DNA of 64,000 bases from Candidatus Uhrbacteria bacterium (lineage in GTDB: Bacteria; Patescibacteriota; Patescibacteriia; 2-12-FULL-60-25), in NCBI GenBank assembly GCA_030649995.1, contig JAUSEV010000042.1:29665-93664 (forward strand), written 5' to 3'. Position numbers and translations under genes: made by a program. Each line of letters opens with the position of its first letter. Position 1 is the first letter of the stretch. The notes beneath the pieces are model-generated. The model was given only the letters and a program-made list of their open reading frames with translations. It ran no database searches and was not told the origin of the DNA. This document shows, in pieces, positions 27,440-64,000 of this stretch.

Positions 27440-27458
27440 CCTTTGTCGTATCAATTTC

Positions 27459-27486
27459 TTTTTTCCATTCTCTATTTTCCATTTTC
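27459..27486. repeat. Heptamer tandem repeat (TTTTTTC/CATTCTC/TATTTTC/CATTTTC)
   Basis: Four consecutive 7-base units, TTTTTTC, CATTCTC, TATTTTC and CATTTTC, end 5 bases before the stop codon of the upstream-lying minus-strand gene (27491). One of nine period-7 loci in the window. Confidence 0.75.
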
Positions 27487-36557: not shown

Positions 36558-36606
36558 CATTACGCATTACTTTATTCGCATTACTCATTACTCATTACGC
36601 ATTACT
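36558..36606. repeat. Heptamer tandem repeat, seven units of the CATTACG/CATTACT type
   Basis: Seven 7-base units follow without a break: CATTACG, CATTACT, TTATTCG, CATTACT, CATTACT, CATTACG, CATTACT. The last two units overlap the stop end of the epimerase gene (36595). The clearest of the nine period-7 loci. Confidence 0.9.
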
Positions 36607-37599
36607 TTTCTTCTGATACCATTCATACGTTTTACGCAAGCCATCTTCCAACGAAGTCTCCGGCACATAGCCGATCAACTCGCGGCATTTGCTGACATCC
36701 GGACAGCGGTGCCGAATCTCTCCCTGTTGTCTGGCCGGAAAAAATTGCGGGGTGAGTGATGCGCCTGATACGCGAATAACCCGTTCGGCCAATTCTTTGA
36801 TGGTGGTTTGTCGACCGGCACCGACATTGATGACCTGCCCGTCTGCCGATTCTGACAACATGGCTCGCAAGGCGACCTCGATATTATCGTCCACAAAAAT
36901 AAAATCGCGTGTTTGCTCACCGTCACCGAAAATGGTAGGTGCCTCTCCTCGCAAAATCTGGTTGATAAAAATGCCCACCACAAAACCATAATCCGACGCT
37001 TCTTGCCCCGGACCGTACACATTAAAAAAACGTAACGCGGTTGATCGCAGTTTGTGTTCTTGAAACATGGCTGCTCCGAATTGCTCTCCAATCAACTTGA
37101 CCAACGCGTACGGAAATTTTGCGTTCCACACGCCATCCTCGCGCTCCGGAATTTCCACCGGTTCGCCATACGCTTCCGAGGAGGAAGAAAAAATCACTTT
37201 TTTTGTGCCGGACAACGCGGCCAATTCATAAATATTTTTGATCCCCCGCAAATCATCGAGCACAGATAACGGATGCTCGACCGTGCGCTTGACTCCAACC
37301 ACCGCGGCATAATGAAAAACATATTCCGGTCGATGCACGAGAAAAACGGTCGACAAATCTTCGCGACGATTGCAATCACCCATGACAAATTGAAAAGACG
37401 GATGACGTTCCATGTCTGAAACATTTGCCTGTTTTCCTGTCGATAAATTATCAAAACAGATAACACGTGCGCCTTCTTGCAACAAACGCCGACAAAGAGT
37501 GGAACCTAAAAATCCGGCTCCACCGGTCACAAGCACCGAACGATCCTTCAACGCACCAAAATCATATCTCATATCTCTTATCTCGTAACTCAATTTCAT
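36595..37599 (-). CDS. NAD-dependent nucleotide-sugar epimerase/dehydratase
   Basis: SVLVTGGAGFLGSTLCRRLL binds NAD, VIFSSSSEAYGEP and YALVK supply Ser and YxxxK, and LRFFNVYGPGQ with RDFIFVDDNIEVALRAML complete the GalE/dTDP-glucose dehydratase-like fold. About 334 residues from the ATG at 37599, which overlaps the asparagine synthase stop in an ATGA. The first 12 residues (KLSYEIRDMRYD) are written by a heptamer repeat and lie outside the conserved domain; the ATG at 37572 would avoid them. It makes or interconverts a UDP- or GDP-sugar. Confidence 0.85.
   Translation of the reverse strand: MKLSYEIRDMRYDFGALKDRSVLVTGGAGFLGSTLCRRLLQEGARVICFDNLSTGKQANVSDMERHPSFQFVMGDCNRREDLSTVFLVHRPEYVFHYAAVVGVKRTVEHPLSVLDDLRGIKNIYELAALSGTKKVIFSSSSEAYGEPVEIPEREDGVWNAKFPYALVKLIGEQFGAAMFQEHKLRSTALRFFNVYGPGQEASDYGFVVGIFINQILRGEAPTIFGDGEQTRDFIFVDDNIEVALRAMLSESADGQVINVGAGRQTTIKELAERVIRVSGASLTPQFFPARQQGEIRHRCPDVSKCRELIGYVPETSLEDGLRKTYEWYQKKSNA
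37563..37597. repeat. Heptamer tandem repeat coding the epimerase N-terminus
   Basis: Five units, CATATCT, CATATCT, CTTATCT, CGTAACT and CAATTTC, run exactly in period 7 through the first codons of the epimerase gene on the minus strand. Confidence 0.8.
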
Positions 37600-39458
37600 G
37601 AATGACGTCCCAACCAAGTTGCCAGAACCAGCAACATCCACAAACGATTCCCGTGATCCGTCCCACGATCATTTTCTTCCAAATAACGTTTGACCGCGGT
37701 CGGCTGACAGACGCGGCGCAACGGTGATCCGTGAGAGAGACAACGTTCCACAAACATCGGACGCAAATCTTTACGAAACCATTCGGCAAGCGGCACTTGG
37801 AAACCGCGCTTGGGCCGATCAAACACTTCGCGCGGAATCATATCACGAAACGCGCGAGCAAGAAGTGGTTTTTGCTTACCACGTTGCAGAACAAAAGACA
37901 AGGGCAGGCGCGCCACGAACTTAACTAATTCCTGATCCAAAAACGGCACACGCGACTCCAACCCGTGCGCCATCGTCGCGCGATCCATCTTTACATTCAA
38001 ATCATCCGGCAGATACGAGGAACGATCAAACTCGAGCGCGCCTTCAATCCCCAGTGATTCTTGAAAGGTGTTGACGATAAATTTTTTGGCTCCGGCATGC
38101 TCTGTTTCTTTTGTGAATTCGGGTTGAAGAAGAGCGCCTTCATCCATGGATGAAAAATAGGAACCGGAAAATAGTGTCGCATACCCATCGGCAAATGAAT
38201 GCATGTGCCGTAACATGCGACCGAAACGGATGGCGCGCGGATCGTGAAAGTGACGGCCAGCCACTTCCATCCATGGAGCTAAAACGGTATGAAGATGCCA
38301 TCGGCGAAGGCGTGCGGCAAGCAAAAAAAACTGATACCGTCGATAGCCGCCGAACAGTTCATCTCCCCCATCTCCGGTAATGACTGCTTTGACCGAACGT
38401 CGCGTCTCTTTAGCGAGTAGCCACGTGGGCAATCCGGATGAATCCGCGTACGGCGCGTCATACAGATCAACGAGTTGATCTACGAGCTCTGTTACCTGTT
38501 CGGAACGAGCCTCAAATTCGTGATGTTCAGTTCCTAACTGTTTTGCCAGTTGACGCGCCTCGGCTCGTTCATCGAAACCAAATGATGGAAAACCCATGGT
38601 GAAAGTTTGTACGGGTTCACGACTCGCCCGCGCCATGAGCGCAACAAGAATCGAGGAATCCATGCCGCCGGATAAAAACGCTCCCACCGGAACATCGGCG
38701 ATCATGCGTAAATGCACAGACTCGTCGATCAGATGACGGACGTGCGACGCCGCGTCCTCAAACGAACCATCAAATTTCGGCAGACGCGGCGCATCATCAT
38801 ATCTCTCAATTCTCCATTCTCCATTCTCCATTCTTCCGCAATGCGCCGGTGGAAGCGAGGCAATTCCTTCAAATCCCGTTTGCGGCGATGGCACATACTG
38901 CAATCCGATGAAGGTGCGAACCGCTAACCAATCAATCCGCGGTTTCTCGCCGATCGTCAGCGCCTTGATCTCTGAAGCGAACACAAAATGATTTTTATCA
39001 CTCTGATAAAAAAACGGTTTCTTGCCTAAGCGATCGCGCGCGAAAAATAATTTTTGACGTTTAGCATCCCACAAAGCAAACGCAAACATCCCGCGCAAAA
39101 AAGACAACATTTTTTCACCGTGACGGTCATACAACGCCAACATCACTTCCGTGTCCGAAGTGGATCGAAATGTCACGCCTTGCGCGATCAAATCTTTCCG
39201 CAATTCCTGATAATTATAAATTTCTCCATTAAAAACGATCATCACCGTCCCGTCATGATTCGCCATAGGTTGAGCCCCTGTCGGCGACAGATCAACCAAC
39301 GCTAAACGACGATGAACAAGTCCGACGGAATGCGCGTCATTGATCCAAATCCCCTCTCCATCCGGCCCACGATGCGAAATCGTTTTCCCCATGCGACGCA
39401 ACCGGTCCTCCGAGACCGGTTGTCCATCAAAACGAATTTCCCCGGCAATGCCGCACAT
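37596..39458 (-). CDS. asnB: Glutamine-hydrolysing asparagine synthase
   Basis: The ATG at 39458 gives MCGIAGEIRFDG with Cys2 as the glutaminase nucleophile, as family members require, so longer upstream frames are rejected. Residues about 1-200 are the class II amidotransferase domain (VHRRLALVDLSPTGAQPM, FNGEIYNYQELR); then AFLSGGMDSSILVALM is the PP-loop of the synthetase domain. Length 620 residues. In glycan loci these often amidate uronic acids rather than making asparagine. A heptamer repeat inserts MENGEWRIERYDD near residue 218 between the two domains, and another precedes the start. Confidence 0.9.
   Translation of the reverse strand: MCGIAGEIRFDGQPVSEDRLRRMGKTISHRGPDGEGIWINDAHSVGLVHRRLALVDLSPTGAQPMANHDGTVMIVFNGEIYNYQELRKDLIAQGVTFRSTSDTEVMLALYDRHGEKMLSFLRGMFAFALWDAKRQKLFFARDRLGKKPFFYQSDKNHFVFASEIKALTIGEKPRIDWLAVRTFIGLQYVPSPQTGFEGIASLPPAHCGRMENGEWRIERYDDAPRLPKFDGSFEDAASHVRHLIDESVHLRMIADVPVGAFLSGGMDSSILVALMARASREPVQTFTMGFPSFGFDERAEARQLAKQLGTEHHEFEARSEQVTELVDQLVDLYDAPYADSSGLPTWLLAKETRRSVKAVITGDGGDELFGGYRRYQFFLLAARLRRWHLHTVLAPWMEVAGRHFHDPRAIRFGRMLRHMHSFADGYATLFSGSYFSSMDEGALLQPEFTKETEHAGAKKFIVNTFQESLGIEGALEFDRSSYLPDDLNVKMDRATMAHGLESRVPFLDQELVKFVARLPLSFVLQRGKQKPLLARAFRDMIPREVFDRPKRGFQVPLAEWFRKDLRPMFVERCLSHGSPLRRVCQPTAVKRYLEENDRGTDHGNRLWMLLVLATWLGRHS
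38807..38834. repeat. Heptamer tandem repeat inside asnB
   Basis: CAATTCT, CCATTCT, CCATTCT, CCATTCT: four 7-base units within the reading frame, translating on the minus strand as part of GRMENGEWRIERY, between the amidotransferase and synthetase domains. Confidence 0.8.
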
Positions 39459-39463
39459 AAAAA

Positions 39464-39491
39464 GTAATGGGTAATACGTAACAAGTAATGT
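39464..39491. repeat. Heptamer tandem repeat upstream of asnB
   Basis: GTAATGG, GTAATAC, GTAACAA, GTAATGT: four 7-base units starting 5 bases outside the asnB start codon. Confidence 0.8.
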
Positions 39492-39577
39492 GAGCACATT
39501 TAAGCATGAAAACAGGAAAAAAAGAACAGAAGTCGCTTTGTCCCCTGATGGGGATACTCTCAAGAATTTTAAAAATT

Positions 39578-39621
39578 ACATATCCTCAATTTCTCGCGAC
39601 CGCGGAAAATTGAGGATATGT
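39578..39621. repeat. Long hairpin with CG-rich loop
   Basis: ACATATCCTCAATTT (39578-39592) pairs perfectly over 15 bp with AAATTGAGGATATGT (39607-39621). The 14-base loop CTCGCGACCGCGGA can itself pair CGCG with CGCG. The loop core TCGCGACCGCGGAAA occurs a second time about 130 bases further on. Function unknown; possibly the end of an inactive element or a small RNA. Confidence 0.7.
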
Positions 39622-39907
39622 TTAACAAATGAGCTTGAAGGAAAAGTTTTCAAATCAGATAATAATGATAGATTCAAATTCAAAGAAAAATGATCAAAGA
39701 AACCTTGGAGACAAGTTTTCGCGACCGCGGAAAGATGGTATCAAATTTCAAACTGTGCGCTATAGCCTCGAAATTGAAATTTTGTCTTCGTCTTTTCCTA
39801 GGCTTACCTTCAAATCGAAGGTTAAACCTTGGGACGAAAAAATCAGACCTGACACCATTTTTTACACCCGCATCGCGGGATTGAACGATGTTTGAAGGTC
39901 CAGCTCT

Positions 39908-39991
39908 GTCATTGCGAGCGCAGTCTGACGGAGCGCGGCAATCTCCCATGCTGCCAAGAGATTGCTTCGTCGTATGACTTCTCGCAATGAC
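39908..39991. repeat. Dispersed palindromic repeat, GTCATTGCGAG...CTCGCAATGAC type (family A, copy 1)
   Basis: It begins GTCATTGCGAGCGCAG, contains GGCAATCTCCC and AGATTGCTTCGTCG, and ends TCTCGCAATGAC. Related copies are at 55587 and 58182. The outer arms are complementary. Confidence 0.8.
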
Positions 39992-40053
39992 ACAATTAAA
40001 ACTAAAAACTCGCCTTTTGTCAAGGTTTGGTGTTATTCTGTGATTCTCAACCT

Positions 40054-40081
40054 GATTACTAATTACTAATTACTAGTTACG
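40054..40081. repeat. Heptamer tandem repeat upstream of a GT4 gene
   Basis: GATTACT, AATTACT, AATTACT, AGTTACG: four 7-base units ending 22 bases before the ATG at 40104. Confidence 0.8.
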
Positions 40082-40103: not shown

Positions 40104-41246
40104 ATGTCTCCCAAAAAAATCCTCCTCGCCGTTACCCTCGCCGAACCGGGCGGGGCGCAATCTTTTGTGCTTGGTTTTGCGAAGTGGTTGAAAGATCGAG
40201 GGCATAATGTGACGGTCGTCGCCGGTGATGGCGCGTGGTTGTTTGATGAATGTGCGCGCTTCTCAATCAACACGATCCGCCTCAAACACATGGGCCGTTC
40301 GATAAATCCGTGGCGCGACGTGCAAGCGTTTTTTGAACTAAAAAAAGTTTTGCTGACCGAGCGTCCCGACGCTATTCATTTGAACAGTACCAAAATGGGC
40401 GTTTTGGGCAGCTTACAGGTGACAGGTGACAGCTTACAGCTTACAAAAATCGTCTATAGAATCGGCGGCTGGGTGTTTCTCGAACCGCTCTCCCCCATCG
40501 TTAAATGGCTTTATGTGACGCTTGAGCGTTGGACCGCTCGCTTCAAAGACGTGATCGTGTGCGTTCATCCGGGTGATGAAAACGTGGCGCGACGCTTGAA
40601 CATCAAACCGAAACAAGCGATTCTGACTATCCCGAATGGCGTTGATATTTCTGCTTTCGATCAGACTCTTCTACCGCGTGAAGAAGCGCGAACAAAACTT
40701 CATTTCGATAAAACTGCTTTTGTGTTTGGAACCGTTGCCCATTTTTATCCGGCAAAAAATCTTGTTCAATATCTCGAGGCTTGCGCCGTCGTACACGCGA
40801 CGAATCCGCACGCACGCTTCATCATCATCGGCGACGGGCCAGAGCGTAAAGCCATCGAATCAAATCGCCGCGAACTCGGACTTGAATCCGTAGTGATATT
40901 GCCGGGCGCGATCGATCACGCTTCGATGCTTCTTCTAGGCTTCGACGCTTTTGTTTTGCCATCGGCCAAAGAGGGCATGTCGTGGTCTTTGCTCGAAGCC
41001 ATGGCCGCGAAACTTCCGTGTATAGCGACAGATGTTGGAGCTAACGCGTGGATGCTGGAAAATGACGCTGGTTGGATCGTCAAAAAACAATCGCCGACGG
41101 AACTCGCGCAAGCCTTGCGATTTGTGATTGAACATCCGATCGAAGCGCAAGCTGCCGGAAAAAAAGCGCGCTCCGAAATCGAAACGCGCTTTCCTCTTTC
41201 CCTGACCTATCAAGAAAATGAACGAACGCTGATGCGTTCAAATTAG
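40104..41246 (+). CDS. Family 4 glycosyltransferase with an inserted heptamer-repeat peptide
   Basis: ILLAVTLAEPGGAQSFVLGFAKWL begins a GT-B enzyme, VFGTVAHFYPAKNLVQYL and EGMSWSLLEAMAAKLPCIATD form the donor site; 380 residues. Between the GVLG element near residue 102 and the next conserved piece (YRIGGWVFLEPLSP) lies SLQVTGDSLQLTK, encoded by five 7-base repeat units. This is a loop in the GT-B N-domain, so it may be tolerated. It is alone on the plus strand, and its stop overlaps that of the convergent ligase gene by 4 bases. Confidence 0.85.
   Translation: MSPKKILLAVTLAEPGGAQSFVLGFAKWLKDRGHNVTVVAGDGAWLFDECARFSINTIRLKHMGRSINPWRDVQAFFELKKVLLTERPDAIHLNSTKMGVLGSLQVTGDSLQLTKIVYRIGGWVFLEPLSPIVKWLYVTLERWTARFKDVIVCVHPGDENVARRLNIKPKQAILTIPNGVDISAFDQTLLPREEARTKLHFDKTAFVFGTVAHFYPAKNLVQYLEACAVVHATNPHARFIIIGDGPERKAIESNRRELGLESVVILPGAIDHASMLLLGFDAFVLPSAKEGMSWSLLEAMAAKLPCIATDVGANAWMLENDAGWIVKKQSPTELAQALRFVIEHPIEAQAAGKKARSEIETRFPLSLTYQENERTLMRSN
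40409..40443. repeat. Heptamer tandem repeat inside the GT4 gene
   Basis: CAGCTTA, CAGGTGA, CAGGTGA, CAGCTTA, CAGCTTA: five units in exact period 7, translated as SLQVTGDSLQLT. Confidence 0.85.
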
Positions 41247-54437: not shown

Positions 54438-54896
54438 ATGCCAATAGCCCCTCTCGAAACAGGAATGAAGGCTCCGAATTTTCGTCTCAAAGATCAAAAC
54501 GGCCGCGAGATCAATCTATCTGACTTTAAGGGTAAGCAATCGCTCGTGCTGATTTTTTATCCCGGTGATTTGACCCCCGGATGCACCATGCAACTGTGCG
54601 CCGTTCGCGATGATTGGAGTAAATTTCGTGCAAACGAGATCATGGTGTTTGGGGTAAATCATGCTGACGGTGAATCCCATAAAAAATTCATAAAAAAATA
54701 CACCTTCCCCTTTCCCCTGCTGATTGATGCCGGAAAAAAAGTGAGTGCCCGCTACGGCGCCACCAAACCGATGTTCAAAGCGACGGTCATCAAGCGCAGT
54801 GTCGTGGGAATCGACAAACAAGGGATCATCCGTTATCTTAAGCTCGGCATGCCAAAAAATTCTGAAATTTTAAAAGCGATGCAGGAAAAAAAGTAG
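54438..54896 (+). CDS. bcp: Peroxiredoxin of the Bcp/PrxQ type
   Basis: FYPGDLTPGCTMQLCAVRDDW carries the peroxidatic Cys49 and a second Cys54 five residues on, the PrxQ arrangement; APNFRLKDQNGREINLSDF opens the thioredoxin fold. 152 residues, cytoplasmic. It reduces hydrogen peroxide and organic peroxides. TATACT at 54421-54426 is a good -10, with the start just before the ATG. First gene of a plus-strand oxidative-defence run (PrxQ, SOD, AhpC). Confidence 0.9.
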   Translation: MPIAPLETGMKAPNFRLKDQNGREINLSDFKGKQSLVLIFYPGDLTPGCTMQLCAVRDDWSKFRANEIMVFGVNHADGESHKKFIKKYTFPFPLLIDAGKKVSARYGATKPMFKATVIKRSVVGIDKQGIIRYLKLGMPKNSEILKAMQEKK

Positions 54897-54963
54897 TAGC
54901 TCGTAGTTTGTAGTTAGTCGTTCGTATACTAGCTACTGACTACGAGCTACTAACTACTAACTT
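54897..54963. repeat. Heptamer tandem repeat folded as a hairpin
   Basis: Left arm GTAGCTC, GTAGTTT, GTAGTTA, GTCGTTC; right arm ACTAGCT, ACTGACT, ACGAGCT, ACTAACT, ACTAACT. Both arms run in period 7 and are nearly complementary, so the repeat forms a long hairpin between the PrxQ and SOD genes, possibly also a terminator or mRNA processing site. Confidence 0.85.
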
Positions 54964-54972
54964 CATTCTCCT

Positions 54973-55569
54973 ATGAAAACCGAAGCCGCTCCTCTACCCT
55001 TCAAATCACTGATCGGGATTTCCGATAAAACGATGGCGATCCATCATGACAAATTGTATGTCGGGTATGTCAACAAGTTGAATGAGGTGTCGGAAAAATT
55101 GATGGCGATGAATGAATCCGGTGTGGGACTTGATGCGGCCAATCAAACCTATTCAGACTTGCGGGCGCTGCGTGATGCCGAGACGTTTGCGGTAAACGGC
55201 GTCTACCTCCATGAATATTATTTCGAAGTGTTGGGTGGCGATGGAAAACCGACTGGCGCGCTCGTGGATGATCTGACAGAAAAATACGGATCTCTCGAAA
55301 AATTCATCACATTTTTTTCCGCGACCGGCATGGCGGTGCGCGGTTGGGTCGTGTTGTGCTGGGACACACAAGCTAAAAAACTCAAAATCTACGGATCTGA
55401 CGCTCACAGCCAAGGCGGCGTGTGGGGATGTCTGCCGATCTTGGTGCTCGACGTCTATGAACACGCCTACTTTATCGATTACGGTTCTGATCGCAAAGCC
55501 TACATCGCGGACTGGTGGAAAAATATTGACTGGAAAAAAGCGAATGAACTTTACGAAAACACGAAATAA
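54973..55569 (+). CDS. Fe/Mn superoxide dismutase
   Basis: The 198-residue protein has the four metal ligands of the family: His24 in MAIHHDKLYVGYV, His80 in VYLHEYYFEVLG, and Asp160 and His164 in LDVYEHAYFIDYG. The conserved His pair that normally follows the first ligand (KHHxxYV) is replaced by KLYVGYV, while the active-site Tyr stays. GMAVRGWVVL and GGVWGCLPILVLDV are in place. It should dismutate superoxide; metal use cannot be told. Between two peroxiredoxin genes, each gap filled with a repeat. Confidence 0.88.
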   Translation: MKTEAAPLPFKSLIGISDKTMAIHHDKLYVGYVNKLNEVSEKLMAMNESGVGLDAANQTYSDLRALRDAETFAVNGVYLHEYYFEVLGGDGKPTGALVDDLTEKYGSLEKFITFFSATGMAVRGWVVLCWDTQAKKLKIYGSDAHSQGGVWGCLPILVLDVYEHAYFIDYGSDRKAYIADWWKNIDWKKANELYENTK

Positions 55570-55674: not shown

Positions 55675-55702
55675 TCTTAATTCTTGATTCATAATTCTTC
55701 CC
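55675..55702. repeat. Heptamer tandem repeat upstream of ahpC
   Basis: TCTTAAT, TCTTGAT, TCATAAT, TCTTCCC: four units ending one base before the ATG at 55704, where a ribosome site would normally be. Confidence 0.75.
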
Positions 55703-55703
55703 T

Positions 55704-56234
55704 ATGATTACCGTCGGAACTAAAGCGCCTGACTTTACAGGCATCAAAGCGTATCAAACCGGTCAACAAGATTTTATCAATATCAGCCTGTCTGATTACA
55801 AAGGCAAGTGGTTGGTGTTTTTCTTTTATCCGCGCGATTTTACTTTTATCTGTCCTACTGAATTGAAAGGGTTCTCGCAAATAGAGGATGCTTTCAAAAA
55901 ATTGAATTGTGAGGTGCTGGCCGCTTCGACTGATTCCGAATGGTCGCACAAAGCCTGGTTCGAGCGTGATCTCACGGAGGTGAAATATCCGATCCTGGCG
56001 GACACCACGCAAAAAATTTCGCGCGACTATCAAGTCTTGAATGAAAACGACGGCTCGGCTGAACGCGGACTTTTTATCATCGACCCGGAAGGTGACATAA
56101 AATATTCGCTAATAAGTTCCGGCTCGGTCGGACGTTCGGTCAAAGAAGTATTGCGTGTACTCGAAGCTCTCCAAACCGGCGAACGCTGTCCCATTGATTG
56201 GACACCTGGTGAGAAAACGTTAGGGAAAGGGTAA
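55704..56234 (+). CDS. ahpC: 2-Cys peroxiredoxin, AhpC type
   Basis: FYPRDFTFICPTELKGF gives the peroxidatic Cys50 and TGERCPIDWTPGE the resolving Cys162, as in typical 2-Cys peroxiredoxins; 176 residues. The tail after Cys162 is short. It reduces peroxides and would need a reductase (AhpF or thioredoxin) not visible here; the convergent glutaredoxin could serve. The start lies right after a heptamer repeat, without Shine-Dalgarno. Confidence 0.9.
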   Translation: MITVGTKAPDFTGIKAYQTGQQDFINISLSDYKGKWLVFFFYPRDFTFICPTELKGFSQIEDAFKKLNCEVLAASTDSEWSHKAWFERDLTEVKYPILADTTQKISRDYQVLNENDGSAERGLFIIDPEGDIKYSLISSGSVGRSVKEVLRVLEALQTGERCPIDWTPGEKTLGKG

Positions 56235-60097: not shown

Positions 60098-60195
60098 GTT
60101 CAACGCTGTTCTCCGGGGTCGTCTAACGGTAGGACAGCGGCCTTTGAAGCCGTGAATCTTGGTTCGAGCCCAAGCCCCGGAGAACAGCGTTGAAC
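60098..60195. repeat. 21-bp inverted repeat around tRNA-Gln
   Basis: The left arm GTTCAACGCTGTTC plus the acceptor strand (60098-60118) is the exact reverse complement of the right arm (60175-60195). The tRNA thus sits at the tip of a long perfect stem in the precursor. Confidence 0.85.
60112..60182 (+). tRNA. tRNA-Gln (anticodon TTG)
   Basis: The acceptor stem TCCGGGG (60112-60118) pairs with CCCCGGA (60175-60181). The anticodon arm GCGGC-CTTTGAA-GCCGT gives anticodon TTG, and the T arm has GGTTCGAGCC. The discriminator is G and CCA is not encoded. The pairing goes on past the acceptor stem for 14 more base pairs into both flanks, which is unusual. Confidence 0.93.
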
Positions 60196-60342: not shown

Positions 60343-63300
60343 CTATGGTTTTTTCACGACGTCAAAGTTGAAGCTGCCCTTGCCTACAACATTGCCTTTT
60401 GCGTCCGTGATCATCACGGTCATCTCATAGACGCCGAGTGGCAAACGAGTGGAAAGACGTTCAGAAGGCTTGCCTTGGAAGGATTTCTGCGCCAACAAGC
60501 CAATGCTACTCCTGACGCGCTTTATCACTTTTCCTTTCGCATCCTTCATCTCTCTCACGATCGTGATCGCTTGCTTCGCCGTTGAAAGGTTCTTGTAACT
60601 GTACCCGAAGGCGAGGAGACCTCCCGGATTAAATGTGGCTCCTGCTTTTAATCCCGTGAAGACAACGGCGGATGTTGGAACAGGCTTTACTGCCGGTGGC
60701 AATGGCGTTGATTTTTTCACGACGCCAAAGTTAAAGCTGTTCTTGTCTATGACCTTGCCTTTTGCGTCCGTGATCATCACGGTCATCTCATAGACGCCGA
60801 GAGGCAAACGCGTGGAGAGACGGTCGGAAGGCTTGCCTTGGAAGGATTTCTTGGCCCTCAAGACGATTCTGCTCTTGACGCGCTTTATCACTTTTCCTTT
60901 TGCGTCCTTCATCTCTCTCACGACCGTGATCGTTTGATTCGCCGTTGTACGGTTCATGTAGCTGTACCCAAAGGCGATGAGACCTCCCGGATTAAATGTT
61001 GCTCCAGCCTTTAATCCCGTGAAGATAACACCTGATGTTGGAGCGGGCTTTACTTCCGGTGGCAATGGCAAAGGTGGAACAGGTGCGACAATCGGTGGTG
61101 GCACAACGATCACAACAGGGGCCGAGGTCGCCGGAACGGGAGTCGGTGTGACCGGTGCGATGGCAAAGCTTCCACCACCACCACCACCACCGCCTCCTCC
61201 TGTACTCCCGCTGTTTCCTCCTCCATTATTTGTAACGAACACCAGACTTGCGGTCGTAGAAGAGGCGTCTGTTGAGTCTTGAGCATCCGTATAAGATCCC
61301 GTACCGGTACCGCTCGCAATAATCTCGAAGTGACCGTTTCCGACAGAAGCTGCATTGGAAGACACTAAGTTGCTCGCAGCCGCTTTGCGGAAGATGCCTG
61401 TTGCGGCTCCGGTTTCCGTAAGAGTCAACGTTTCCGAATCGCTTCCTGCCGCCACATTGATCGTCACCGGAATAGTGAGCGTTTCCACCGTTGCTCCCAA
61501 CAAGTTACGGTTAGAATCTTGAACTTCTACATAGACGGAACCCGGAGTCGTGTAAGAGCTTTGTTGCGTGCCGTTGGTATCCACGAATTTTACGTATTCT
61601 GCGGCGTGCACAATGCTCCCGGTTGTTTCCGTGATCGTGCCTGTGTTGGTGATGAGACCGACGGCTGTCAAGGTATTTGCGCCAACCGCGAGAGTCCCAC
61701 TGTTGTTTAAGAGTGTTGTTCCCATGATTGTGGTCGAAGCCGTGAGTGAGTACGTTCCTCCACCTCTGAATTGAACGATATTGTGCACGGCTGATCCCAC
61801 ATTGACGGCACCTGCAGCGGTGTATTTTGTGGTGCCTGATCCGGCGCTAAACGTTCCGCTGTTGGTGAAACTGTCCACCACATTCAATGTGCCGGTTCTT
61901 TGGTTGATGGTTCCGCTGGCCCCATTGGTCAGAGCTCCGGTTGTTGTAGCGATTCCGGAACCGACATCAAACGTTCCATTATTTCTATACGTCCCGGAAA
62001 AGAGCTTGTTCCCAGTATCAGAACCGATCGAACCCGTAGAAGTGGCGTTTCCAGTAAAGGTGAGTGTTCCGGAAGTGGAAGTAACCGTGGTTCCGGACAG
62101 GAGTGTCATGATCCCTGTGATGGTGAGACTGTTGGCCGCGGCCGTCAAGGTTCCTCCAGTGGTCGTCGCATTATTGCTGACCGTAGCATTTCCTCCGAGC
62201 GTCTGAGTGTAACCGGGGGTCAAAACTTCTAAGTTAAAGTAGGTTGTTCCTGGAACGGTCTGGCTGGATTGACTCACATAACGCACCGTTCCGGCATTCG
62301 CGTTGAACGTTCCCGTGTTGGTCCATGTGGAGCTTGCTGCCAGCATACCGCTGTTGTTATTGATGGTACCGCTGGCTGCGTTAGTAAGAGTGCCAGTTGT
62401 GGTAGCCGTGCCGGTTCCCACATTAAATGTTCCATTATTTTGGAGAGTGCCAACGAAGACCATATTGCCGGAATTTGAACCGATGGAACCTGTGGATGAG
62501 GCATTGCCGGTAAAGGTCAGCACGCCGGAAGTGGAAGTGACCGTGGTTCCGGAGCCAAGCGTCGAAGCGCCTGTTACTCCGAGGTTCAGAGCCGCGGCGC
62601 TAAGCGTTCCTGCTCCGGTCGTCGTGAGAGCTCCGGCAATCGTTGGATTCATGGTCACAAAGGTCGCTGTTCCACTCCCCTTGGTCATCTCAAGATTGTT
62701 GAAAGTAAAGCCGGCGATGCTTTGCGTGGCCGTACCATCAAGCTTAACGGTACCGCTTTGGCCATTGAGGATTGCGGCGTTTGTACTGCTCGTAAAGTTT
62801 GCAAGAACCGTTAAGCGACCGCTGCTGCCGTTGATCGTGCCTCCATTTGTCAGTGCGGCAGTGCTCGTAACCTGACCCCCTCCAACATTCAATGTAGCGG
62901 AAGTCTGGTTATCGAAGGTGGAACTGAAGAGAATGTTTCCTGTGCCCTGACCGATGGTTCCACCGGTTGATGTGGCGCTTAAGGTAAACGTCATTGTTCC
63001 GGAAGTGGAAGTGACTGTGCCATTATTTTGAGTGGTTCCGGAGAATGTCATGTTTCCCGTATTTGTCTGGACAGTACCGGTAGATGTGACGTTGCCTGTA
63101 AAGGTCATTACGCCTGATGTGGAAGTCACGGAGTTTGCCGTAAGAATGGTTGAAGCGCCGATGACGGATAAGGCATTCGTACCGAAGAAGAGAGAGCCTC
63201 CTGTTCCGTTCATGCCGAGAGTGTCGGCGATGGTTATGGCCCCGCCTGAAACCGTTACGATGCCTGCGGTCTTGATGGAGTCAACGGCATCAGGAAAGAG

Positions 63301-64000
63301 AGTAGCGGTGAGTGTTAATGTTTGATTTGCGGCTCCATTAAACCTCAAGGTACTTAAGGTGGTCGTGGTATAGGTGCCGTTGGTGTGGTCAAAGTTGGCG
63401 CCAACAGAAAGGATGCCTGTTCCATTTGCCGTTGAACTCACGTTGGTAAAGTTTCCGGTCGTTGTGGCTGTACCTGATCCAACATCGAAGATGCCGTTGT
63501 TTTGGAAGGTGTTGCTGAAGAGTTGGTTGCCTGAACTGGAACCGATGGCACCGGTTGAGGTGACGGCACCTGTGAAGGTGAGGGTGCCGGAAGTGGAAGT
63601 AACAGTGTTGCCAAGAAGCATGACGGTGGCTCCTGAAACGGTGAGGGCATTGGTGGCCATGGCGAGGCTGCTGCCGCCTGCACCGAACAGGTCAACATTG
63701 TTTGCGACGGTCATGCCTCCTCCGGAAAAAGTCACTGCCCCTGCGGTTTTGGTGGAACTCACGTTTGCAGGGAACAAGGTGGCTTCAAGGGTCACGGTTT
63801 GAGCTGCAGCGCCTCCAAAGCGGAGCATACTGCCGGTTGAGGTGGTGTAGGCTCCTGTGCTACTGGCGCTAAAGTCACCGGCAATAGAGAGGATGCCTGT
63901 GCCGTTGGTGGTGGAGCTCGTGTTTCTGAACGCTCCTGTGGTTGTAGCTGTGCCTGAACCGATATCGAGGACTCCGTTGTTTTGGAGAGTGGATGAGAAG
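60343..64000 (-). CDS. Very long repeat-rich adhesin-like secreted protein (N-terminus beyond the window)
   Basis: The frame is open from 60343 to the window edge without a stop, so at least 1,219 residues are seen and the protein continues. Most is made of imperfect repeats of about 90-110 residues rich in Thr, Ser, Gly and Asn, with recurring TSTSGTLTFTG, STGSIGS and NNGTFDVGSG, as in beta-helical surface adhesins. A 20-residue Gly tract and a Pro/Val-rich linker then lead to two near-identical domains of 121 residues (FTGLKAGATFNPGGL, REMKDAKGKVIKRV, LGVYEMTVMITDAKG). It probably forms a fibre on the cell surface. No cell-wall sorting motif is seen at its end. Confidence 0.85.
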   Translation of the reverse strand, partial: FSSTLQNNGVLDIGSGTATTTGAFRNTSSTTNGTGILSIAGDFSASSTGAYTTSTGSMLRFGGAAAQTVTLEATLFPANVSSTKTAGAVTFSGGGMTVANNVDLFGAGGSSLAMATNALTVSGATVMLLGNTVTSTSGTLTFTGAVTSTGAIGSSSGNQLFSNTFQNNGIFDVGSGTATTTGNFTNVSSTANGTGILSVGANFDHTNGTYTTTTLSTLRFNGAANQTLTLTATLFPDAVDSIKTAGIVTVSGGAITIADTLGMNGTGGSLFFGTNALSVIGASTILTANSVTSTSGVMTFTGNVTSTGTVQTNTGNMTFSGTTQNNGTVTSTSGTMTFTLSATSTGGTIGQGTGNILFSSTFDNQTSATLNVGGGQVTSTAALTNGGTINGSSGRLTVLANFTSSTNAAILNGQSGTVKLDGTATQSIAGFTFNNLEMTKGSGTATFVTMNPTIAGALTTTGAGTLSAAALNLGVTGASTLGSGTTVTSTSGVLTFTGNASSTGSIGSNSGNMVFVGTLQNNGTFNVGTGTATTTGTLTNAASGTINNNSGMLAASSTWTNTGTFNANAGTVRYVSQSSQTVPGTTYFNLEVLTPGYTQTLGGNATVSNNATTTGGTLTAAANSLTITGIMTLLSGTTVTSTSGTLTFTGNATSTGSIGSDTGNKLFSGTYRNNGTFDVGSGIATTTGALTNGASGTINQRTGTLNVVDSFTNSGTFSAGSGTTKYTAAGAVNVGSAVHNIVQFRGGGTYSLTASTTIMGTTLLNNSGTLAVGANTLTAVGLITNTGTITETTGSIVHAAEYVKFVDTNGTQQSSYTTPGSVYVEVQDSNRNLLGATVETLTIPVTINVAAGSDSETLTLTETGAATGIFRKAAASNLVSSNAASVGNGHFEIIASGTGTGSYTDAQDSTDASSTTASLVFVTNNGGGNSGSTGGGGGGGGGGSFAIAPVTPTPVPATSAPVVIVVPPPIVAPVPPLPLPPEVKPAPTSGVIFTGLKAGATFNPGGLIAFGYSYMNRTTANQTITVVREMKDAKGKVIKRVKSRIVLRAKKSFQGKPSDRLSTRLPLGVYEMTVMITDAKGKVIDKNSFNFGVVKKSTPLPPAVKPVPTSAVVFTGLKAGATFNPGGLLAFGYSYKNLSTAKQAITIVREMKDAKGKVIKRVRSSIGLLAQKSFQGKPSERLSTRLPLGVYEMTVMITDAKGNVVGKGSFNFDVVKKP
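60349..61074 (-). repeat. Two 363-base direct repeats at the end of the adhesin gene
   Basis: The stretch beginning TTTTTTCACGAC at 60349 recurs at 60712, an exact shift of 363 bases (121 codons), and remains nearly identical in DNA and protein over most of the unit. It points to a recent duplication. Confidence 0.85.

What the first reader, a model, noticed from the sequence alone, without database searches (positions are those of the whole stretch)
36558..36606. Nine loci of exact-period-7 degenerate tandem repeats, each with its own unit
Seen directly: 4-9 consecutive 7-base units at 27459, 36558, 37563, 38807, 39464, 40054, 40409, 54897 and 55675, with units as different as CATTACT, CATATCT, CCATTCT, GTAATAC, AATTACT, CAGGTGA, GTAGTTA and TCTTAAT. 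Within one locus units vary at one to three positions; between loci only the period is shared. Known: heptanucleotide STRR repeats have been described in cyanobacteria (for example Calothrix). Inference: the period rather than the sequence is conserved, so some copying process (slippage, template-switching or an unknown writer) is at work in this genome.
Basis: partly seen in the sequence, partly recalled or inferred. Interest (0 to 1): 0.7.

Follow-up and report, generated by a model that had tools for sequence, protein, structure and literature searches.

The report
Seven-base DNA-repair scars in tiny bacteria
The genome of this tiny uncultured bacterium is peppered with imperfect 7-base repeats, and here and in the other bacteria and viruses examined facing pairs of such repeats put the G-rich strand first about nine times in ten; they are likely scars left where damaged DNA ends were extended and rejoined, which would give a testable cause for a common bacterial repeat pattern that has no accepted explanation.

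Summary
Confirmed. Period 7 stands far above neighbouring periods in the window (8 strong segments, mean 0.0 in simulations) and in 320 kb more of the genome (110 segments; every period other than 7, 14 and 21 has at most 10). Same-genus genomes are named Candidatus Uhrbacteria. "Only the period is shared" is too strong: units recur as genome-specific families and some arrays are copies of one another. The trait is patchy: 25 of 55 sampled relatives show none, 13 of 55 reach 15 per 100 kb. Net gains inside genes are never a multiple of 7 residues (0 of 29), so plain 7-base slippage alone fits poorly. Adjacent units resemble each other more than distant ones in other phyla and viruses; in this genome that fails a stricter control. 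Facing arrays are G-rich strand first in 78 of 87 pairs overall, but only 15 of 22 in relatives. Best model (inferred): 3' ends at breaks or gaps are extended by self-copied G-strand heptads, then joined. Selection near gene ends is a live rival. Heptamer arrays are known (PMC6344855, PMC4692102); their cause is not. None of eight enzyme families searched explains the trait.

The parts
27455..27486 (-). Degenerate heptad array (GAAAATG / GAGAATG type) in the gap between two co-directional genes; strand given is the G-rich one
36558..36605 (-). Array GTAATGN (CATTACN on +) with a short aperiodic spacer; shares 37 exact bases with an array on contig C28
37562..37591 (-). Array GAGATAT/GAGATAA at the 5' end of the epimerase-type gene 36595-37641
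38804..38834 (-). Array GAATGGA inside the asparagine synthase gene, in frame, no net length change against relatives
39464..39488 (+). Weak array GTAATGN next to the asparagine synthase start (ATG at 39458), G-rich strand running away from the gene
39489..40051 (.). Filler between the two arrays; the whole gap is 645 bases here against about 40-50 in three relatives; holds a REP-like palindrome (about 39905-39995)
40052..40080 (-). Array GTAATTA / GTAACTA before the glycosyltransferase start at 40104, G-rich strand running away from the gene
40409..40445 (+). Array CAGSTKA inside the glycosyltransferase gene 40104-41246, in frame, G and C balanced; same loop holds a different heptad-type insert in a 75-77% identical protein
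54896..54925 (+). Left (G-rich-first) arm of a facing pair, GTAGTTA type
54927..54962 (-). Right arm of the same pair, ending 10 bases before the superoxide dismutase gene at 54973
55675..55697 (-). Weak array (TCTTAAT / TCTTGAT on +) just before the AhpC/TSA-type gene at 55704

Best explanation
This Candidatus Uhrbacteria-type genome carries many degenerate 7-base tandem arrays, and they likely arise when a 3' DNA end at a break or gap is extended by repeatedly copying its own last seven bases into a G-rich tail and is then presumably rejoined, leaving single arrays or head-to-head pairs. Shown: the strict period of 7, genome-specific unit families, patchiness among relatives, concentration in gaps and variable protein loops, length changes that do not follow the unit, and a G-rich-strand-first polarity of facing arrays. 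Inferred: that the starting point is a broken or gapped end, that the G-rich strand is the one written, that purifying selection then confines arrays to gaps and loops, and that later copying between arrays spreads the local vocabulary. The enzyme is not identified; Pol IV and Pol X domains were not found in this genome, so a replicative or Pol I-type polymerase would be the simplest candidate.
For: Period 7 excess. Facing arrays within 60 bases are G-rich strand first in 78 of 87 pairs (own 12 of 13, relatives 15 of 22, other-phyla loci 29 of 30, viral loci 22 of 22; convergent gaps 8 of 9, divergent 11 of 12), also where the two arms have unrelated units (G-first:C-first 1:0, 2:3, 10:1, 8:0 in the same four sets), which foldback copying alone would not give. 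In-gene arrays: net length change nonzero in 84% of 44 against 22% of 885 control windows; 0 of 29 gains are multiples of 7 residues. Neighbouring units more alike than distant ones, including arrays picked without using lag 7: other phyla 102 of 138 untied arrays, p=7.9e-10; viral 65 of 82, p=1.2e-8; relatives 13 of 19, p=0.044. Homology to relatives is better on the G-strand 5' flank of in-gene arrays (0.534 vs 0.422, 39 arrays, p=0.025, post hoc). At the asparagine synthase/glycosyltransferase gap, G-rich strands run outward from both genes with filler between. Published Xanthomonas GGGAATC repeats also form close convergent pairs (PMC4692102 section 10).
Against: In this genome the neighbour-similarity test is not significant under the stricter control (24 arrays for, 16 against, p=0.12). 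Relatives show the polarity only as 15 of 22, and 2:3 for unrelated arms. The test for native seed sequence inside array edges was null (p=0.39), and the flank result weakens to p=0.059 with 12-residue flanks. Single arrays before gene starts tend to be C-rich in the sense strand in this genome and other phyla, so selection could make part of the polarity. Copying between loci and shared vocabularies need a second step. No break, tail or enzyme has been observed. Other-phyla and viral loci were fetched by heptad patterns, so they are not a random sample.
Confidence: 0.35

Rival explanations
1. Plain replication slippage: the polymerase slips back by about 7 bases, perhaps the length of duplex it holds, and the arrays then drift by point mutation. 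This is the published proposal for heptamer repeats.
For: Period 7 with multiples 14 and 21. No MutS in any of the 36 genomes of this family searched. Proposed by Mrazek and colleagues as cited in PMC4692102 section 16 and PMC4679880.
Against: 0 of 29 net in-gene gains are multiples of 7 residues, though frame-keeping whole-unit slippage requires that (homologs are distant and some carry arrays themselves, so the alignments are noisy). It does not predict a polarity of facing arrays, nor shared aperiodic spacers between loci. MutS-bearing G043 also has 5 arrays in 20 kb.
Confidence: 0.25
2. Selected regulatory arrays: heptads act at gene edges (start regions, transcript ends) as binding sites or structures, and selection keeps orientation and place.
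For: About 12% of bases (non-coding by crude ORF calls) hold 55% of array bases in this genome (2,417 of 4,367). Single arrays near starts are C-sense in 17 of 23 cases here and 32 of 38 in other-phyla loci. Facing arms fold into strong hairpins in four of five cases tested. A translational role was suggested for TAACTGA repeats in Beggiatoaceae (PMC4679880, abstract).
Against: Units differ between genomes and loci; no clear preference among gap types; arrays also sit inside unrelated genes; orientation near starts is absent in relatives (C-sense 8 of 18); 25 of 55 relatives show none in the stretches sampled.
Confidence: 0.15
3. A non-autonomous mobile repeat (REP- or MITE-like hairpin with heptad stems) moved by an enzyme acting in trans.
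For: Shared loops and spacers between loci: a 25-base exact match with 15 aperiodic positions (C6, C21), a 37-base match (window, C28) and CGGCCG loops on one contig; a 116-base query finds 66 matches in the genome, most of them heptads only.
Against: No Y1 (REP-type) transposase in this genome. Arrays have no fixed ends, loop or length, and units differ between genomes. Other transposase families were not searched.
Confidence: 0.1
4. A dedicated writer enzyme, for example reverse-transcriptase- or terminal-transferase-like, gained and lost between species.
For: Patchy distribution between close relatives and a strand polarity.
Against: Reverse transcriptase (RVT_1) occurs in 23 of 57 genomes and is not found in array-rich G003, G006, G012, G031, G042, G052 and G054; no other candidate was found among the families searched. 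Multiple units per genome speak against one fixed template.
Confidence: 0.12
5. Chance or assembly artefact.
For: The assembly is in 50 contigs.
Against: No chance segments at score 12 in 20 simulations; arrays also in assemblies of few contigs such as G012 and G015 and in named cyanobacterial genomes; reading frames stay open across in-gene arrays.
Confidence: 0.01

Closest known systems
Heptameric simple sequence repeats of prokaryotes, including cyanobacterial STRR and the Xanthomonas/Nostoc GGGAATC-type repeats (PMC6344855, passages; PMC4692102, sections 10 and 16 and passages)
   Same: 7-base unit, mostly intergenic, imperfect units, patchy between species, close convergent pairs in Xanthomonas
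   Different: Here many unit families per genome, a polarity seen across units, other phyla and viruses, and in-frame arrays inside genes; no G-quadruplex motif is needed
TAACTGA repeats of marine Beggiatoaceae (PMC4679880, abstract and passages)
   Same: 7-base direct repeats, mostly between genes, many just before a start codon
   Different: One fixed unit there, related heptamers rare; one inverted case only
Tandem repeats of archaeal Borg elements (PMC9879509, abstract and passages)
   Same: Arise independently per locus, highly genome-specific, between and inside genes
   Different: Borg repeats are near-perfect, of many unit lengths, and inside genes divisible by three; here the unit is always 7 and imperfect
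Telomere repeats and head-to-head telomere fusion sites of eukaryotes (recalled, no call)
   Same: G-rich strand at the 3' end; facing arrays G-rich first
   Different: No fixed template unit, no telomerase-like gene tracking the trait, not shown at any DNA end
REP/BIME palindromes with Y1 (RAYT) transposases (recalled, tested)
   Same: Dispersed intergenic hairpins
   Different: No Y1 transposase in this genome; stems are heptad arrays of variable length

Membership tests
Bacterial heptameric tandem repeats (STRR type) | 7-base tandem unit in excess of other periods | tested here: met
Bacterial heptameric tandem repeats (STRR type) | Preference for non-coding DNA | tested here: met
   2,417 of 4,367 array bases lie outside crude ORF calls that cover 88% of the sequence
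Bacterial heptameric tandem repeats (STRR type) | Copy number differs between strains | not testable with these tools
   no strain-level DNA held; nearest protein 75-77% identical
REP/RAYT elements | Y1 transposase in the genome | tested here: not met
   0 matches in G000; 25 of 57 genomes have one
REP/RAYT elements | Fixed palindrome with conserved ends | tested here: not met
   contexts vary; few shared loops
Telomere-like healing of DNA ends | G-rich strand points to the junction in head-to-head pairs | tested here: met
   78 of 87 pairs; 15 of 22 in relatives
Telomere-like healing of DNA ends | Fixed unit set by an RNA template | tested here: not met
   49 distinct top units among 116 arrays
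Telomere-like healing of DNA ends | Arrays found at free DNA ends in cells | not testable with these tools
   needs end sequencing
Borg-type tandem repeats | Near-perfect units, in-gene units divisible by three | tested here: not met
   unit of 7, mean neighbour identity about 0.8 in 40 arrays

The most novel reading that the evidence does not exclude
Heptad arrays across bacteria and their viruses are fossils of one end-healing reaction: broken 3' ends receive a self-templated, G-rich, 7-base tail, like a telomere without a fixed template, and facing arrays are the fusion points of two such tailed ends.
Probability: 0.18. Interest if true: 0.88.

Novelty: new variant of a known kind. Interest (0 to 1): 0.64.

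Why it matters
[quoted passage not shown] A polarity rule, lengths inside genes that ignore the unit, and related genomes with and without the trait turn that open question into a testable one: find the step that writes seven bases at a time. If the end-tailing model holds, each array marks an old break and gives a map of repaired damage.

Tried and rejected

Enzyme families over 57 genomes (matches found): Y1 transposase 25, Pol IV type IMS 37 (52), MutS 2 (53), SbcD 8 weak and 0 over cut-off (54), reverse transcriptase 23 (55), Pol I 5'-nuclease 51 (57), Pol X thumb 28 (58), Ku 0 (65). By eye none separates array-rich from array-free genomes. Y1, IMS, MutS, SbcD, Pol X and Ku have no match in this genome, so they are not needed. 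MutS-bearing G043 has arrays, so loss of MutS is not needed either. SbcC, LigD, recombinases and other transposases were not searched.

Gap type: one search hinted at a preference for co-directional gaps; a per-gap count did not bear it out clearly (own 46 of 216 co-directional, 7 of 53 divergent, 9 of 56 convergent). Gene calls in all these scripts are greedy longest ORFs, not curated.

Native sequence inside array edges: null. Origin of the filler 39489-40051: only its palindrome and short fragments recur in the genome.

Literature: searches showed no paper on heptad arrays in Uhrbacteria or Patescibacteria, and none that joins heptads with end joining (listings only; open-access library). 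Mrazek 2007 was not read; it is known here through PMC4692102 and PMC4679880.

Full report
What is there. The window lies in contig C3 of a 1.08 Mb, 50-contig genome. Two proteins found with its glycosyltransferase are named Candidatus Uhrbacteria and come from contigs of the lengths of G001:C14 and G002:C10, both same-genus genomes. The nine loci are real, seven strong and two weak. At segment score 12 or more the window has 8 period-7 segments, mean 0.0 in simulations, and 0 to 2 at the other periods 5 to 13.

Genome scale. In 17 further stretches of the same genome (319,583 bases; an 18th, L062, reads N) period 7 has 110 segments, 14 has 83 and 21 has 32; no other period from 3 to 40 has more than 10. 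Sixteen of the 17 stretches lie on contigs with CATTACT hits, so 34 per 100 kb is an upper guide; the window alone gives 12.5 per 100 kb.

Units. By eye the arrays fall into about ten families (GTAATGN, GTAACTN, GAATCAA, TGAAGCA, TAGGCNT, CAGGTTA, ATTAGAC, GAATGGA, GAGATAC and others). Among 116 arrays there are 49 distinct top units, 27 of them seen once. Two arrays share their top unit in 319 of 7,130 within-genome pairs and 50 of 14,398 between-genome pairs, over the 11 genomes with at least 5 arrays; this genome supplies 298 of the 319, and G003, G027 and G042 have none. Same-genus G002 has four arrays, two of them CATTACT, and G001 three with other units. Some arrays are copies: 25 exact bases with 15 aperiodic positions between C6 and C21, and 37 exact bases with a spacer between the window's 36558 array and C28.

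Order within arrays. Picked by lag-7 matching, adjacent units are more alike than non-adjacent ones in this genome (0.799 vs 0.710, 40 arrays, p=4.8e-6), in 12 relatives (0.746 vs 0.614, 40 arrays, p=6.3e-7), in loci of named genomes of other phyla (0.886 vs 0.807, 158 arrays) and in viral contigs (0.843 vs 0.737, 50; 0.834 vs 0.723, 47). That way of picking favours adjacent similarity. Picked by lag-14 matching instead, lag 7 beats lag 21 in other phyla (102 arrays against 36, p=7.9e-10), viral loci (65 against 17, p=1.2e-8) and relatives (13 against 6, p=0.044), but not significantly in this genome (24 against 16, p=0.12). Arrays holding both arms were dropped before these counts. So local copying is supported in general and only suggested here.

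Distribution. Of 55 relatives sampled with 4 to 76 kb each, 25 show no array and 13 reach 15 or more per 100 kb (one of them on a single array); same-genus G001 and G002 have 4.0 and 5.7. G056 was not sampled. Array-rich genomes have their own units.

Inside genes. Of 76 in-gene arrays, 46 had a spanning homolog, 44 at 38% identity or more. Against the best homolog, net length change is nonzero in 84%, against 22% of 885 control windows in the same alignments; 29 are gains, 7 are zero, 8 are losses, and none of the gains is a multiple of 7 residues (about 1% expected if remainders were even). Some homologs carry arrays themselves, which adds noise. The asparagine synthase array adds nothing. 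The glycosyltransferase array adds 2 residues against G017, G002 and G013 and is 7 shorter than G001; a 75-77% identical protein has TSYILHPTSYIL in the same loop, and G013 has a CTACTCA array in a second loop. A loop after VGDYAWE in another protein carries arrays of unrelated units in G003, G015 and G025.

Facing pairs. Neighbouring arrays of opposite G/C imbalance within 60 bases put the G-rich strand 5' in 12 of 13 pairs in this genome, 15 of 22 in relatives, 29 of 30 in other-phyla loci and 22 of 22 in viral loci: 78 of 87 (p=7.5e-15; identical pairs counted once, near-identical ones not removed). It holds between co-directional genes (43 of 47), divergent genes (11 of 12) and convergent genes (8 of 9, p=0.039); in-gene pairs are few (3 of 4). 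Where the arms have unrelated units the ratio G-first:C-first is 1:0, 2:3, 10:1 and 8:0 in the same four sets. A G-first pair read on the other strand is again G-first. Foldback copying alone would need complementary arms; two independently tailed 3' ends joined head to head would give this picture, as in telomere fusions (recalled). In Xanthomonas, 70 and 75 close convergent pairs of GGGAATC repeats and a shorter distance to the 5' ORF were reported (PMC4692102 section 10); the discussion section I read gives no cause for this.

Orientation to genes, for and against. Single arrays near starts in co-directional gaps are C-sense in 17 of 23 cases here and 32 of 38 in other phyla, but 8 of 18 in relatives; between convergent genes the strand leaving the nearest stop is G-rich in 6 of 10, 14 of 18 and 1 of 4. 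Selection against start codons or Shine-Dalgarno-like stretches in the G-rich strand could produce part of this. Homology to relatives is better on the G-strand 5' flank than on the 3' flank of in-gene arrays (0.534 vs 0.422, 39 arrays, p=0.025; p=0.059 with 12-residue flanks), a post hoc result; the test inside the array edges was null.

The asparagine synthase/glycosyltransferase gap. It is 645 bases here and about 40 to 50 in G001, G017 and G002. A G-rich strand runs outward from each gene edge (39464-39488, 40052-40080), and between lie 563 bases with a palindrome that recurs at 22 other places in the genome. This is what capture of filler between two tailed ends would look like; it is one case.

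Structure. Four facing pairs fold as single strands far better than shuffles (z -4.0 to -10.1); the one-armed 36558 array does not (z -0.65).

Genes. MutS occurs in 2 of 57 genomes, neither in this family, but array-rich G043 is one of them; SbcD has no match over cut-off; Ku has none. Pol IV type, Pol X and Y1 transposase have no match in this genome. Reverse transcriptase does not track the trait. The Pol I 5'-nuclease domain is nearly universal (51 of 57). The factor that separates array-rich from array-free genomes is unknown.

Verdict. A copying process is the best reading; the end-tailing mechanism is my inference, at 0.35.

Noticed in passing
window 39905-39995: REP-like palindrome (TGTCATTGCGAG ... 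CTCGCAATGACA) that recurs at 22 other places in the genome and whose core is in 21 of 390 fetched loci, some overlapping.
   Followed up: partly
window 39594-39608 and 39719-39733: The same CGCGACCGCGGAAA stretch twice, 125 bases apart, in the filler between two arrays; seen in one other unrelated fetched locus, L363.
   Followed up: partly
own-genome arrays such as L069:13485-13518, L075:11170-11205, L070:9121-9154: 8 of 116 arrays carry TTTGACG entering from one end, against about 0.8 expected; most are of the TGAAGC family. Unexplained.
   Followed up: partly
L285 (G012), L288 (G015), L295 (G025), L280 (G003): Array-rich relatives have large in-frame heptad inserts in proteins; the loop after VGDYAWE was hit in three species with unrelated units.
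   Followed up: partly
window 60349-61069: Two tandem copies of a 363-base unit (87% alike) inside the ORF 60343-63828.
   Followed up: no
window 60111-60183: tRNA-Gln (ttg), the only tRNA found in the window.
   Followed up: no
G000:C4:10047-10580: The one reverse-transcriptase-type match of this genome (E 7.9e-14), type not determined.
   Followed up: no
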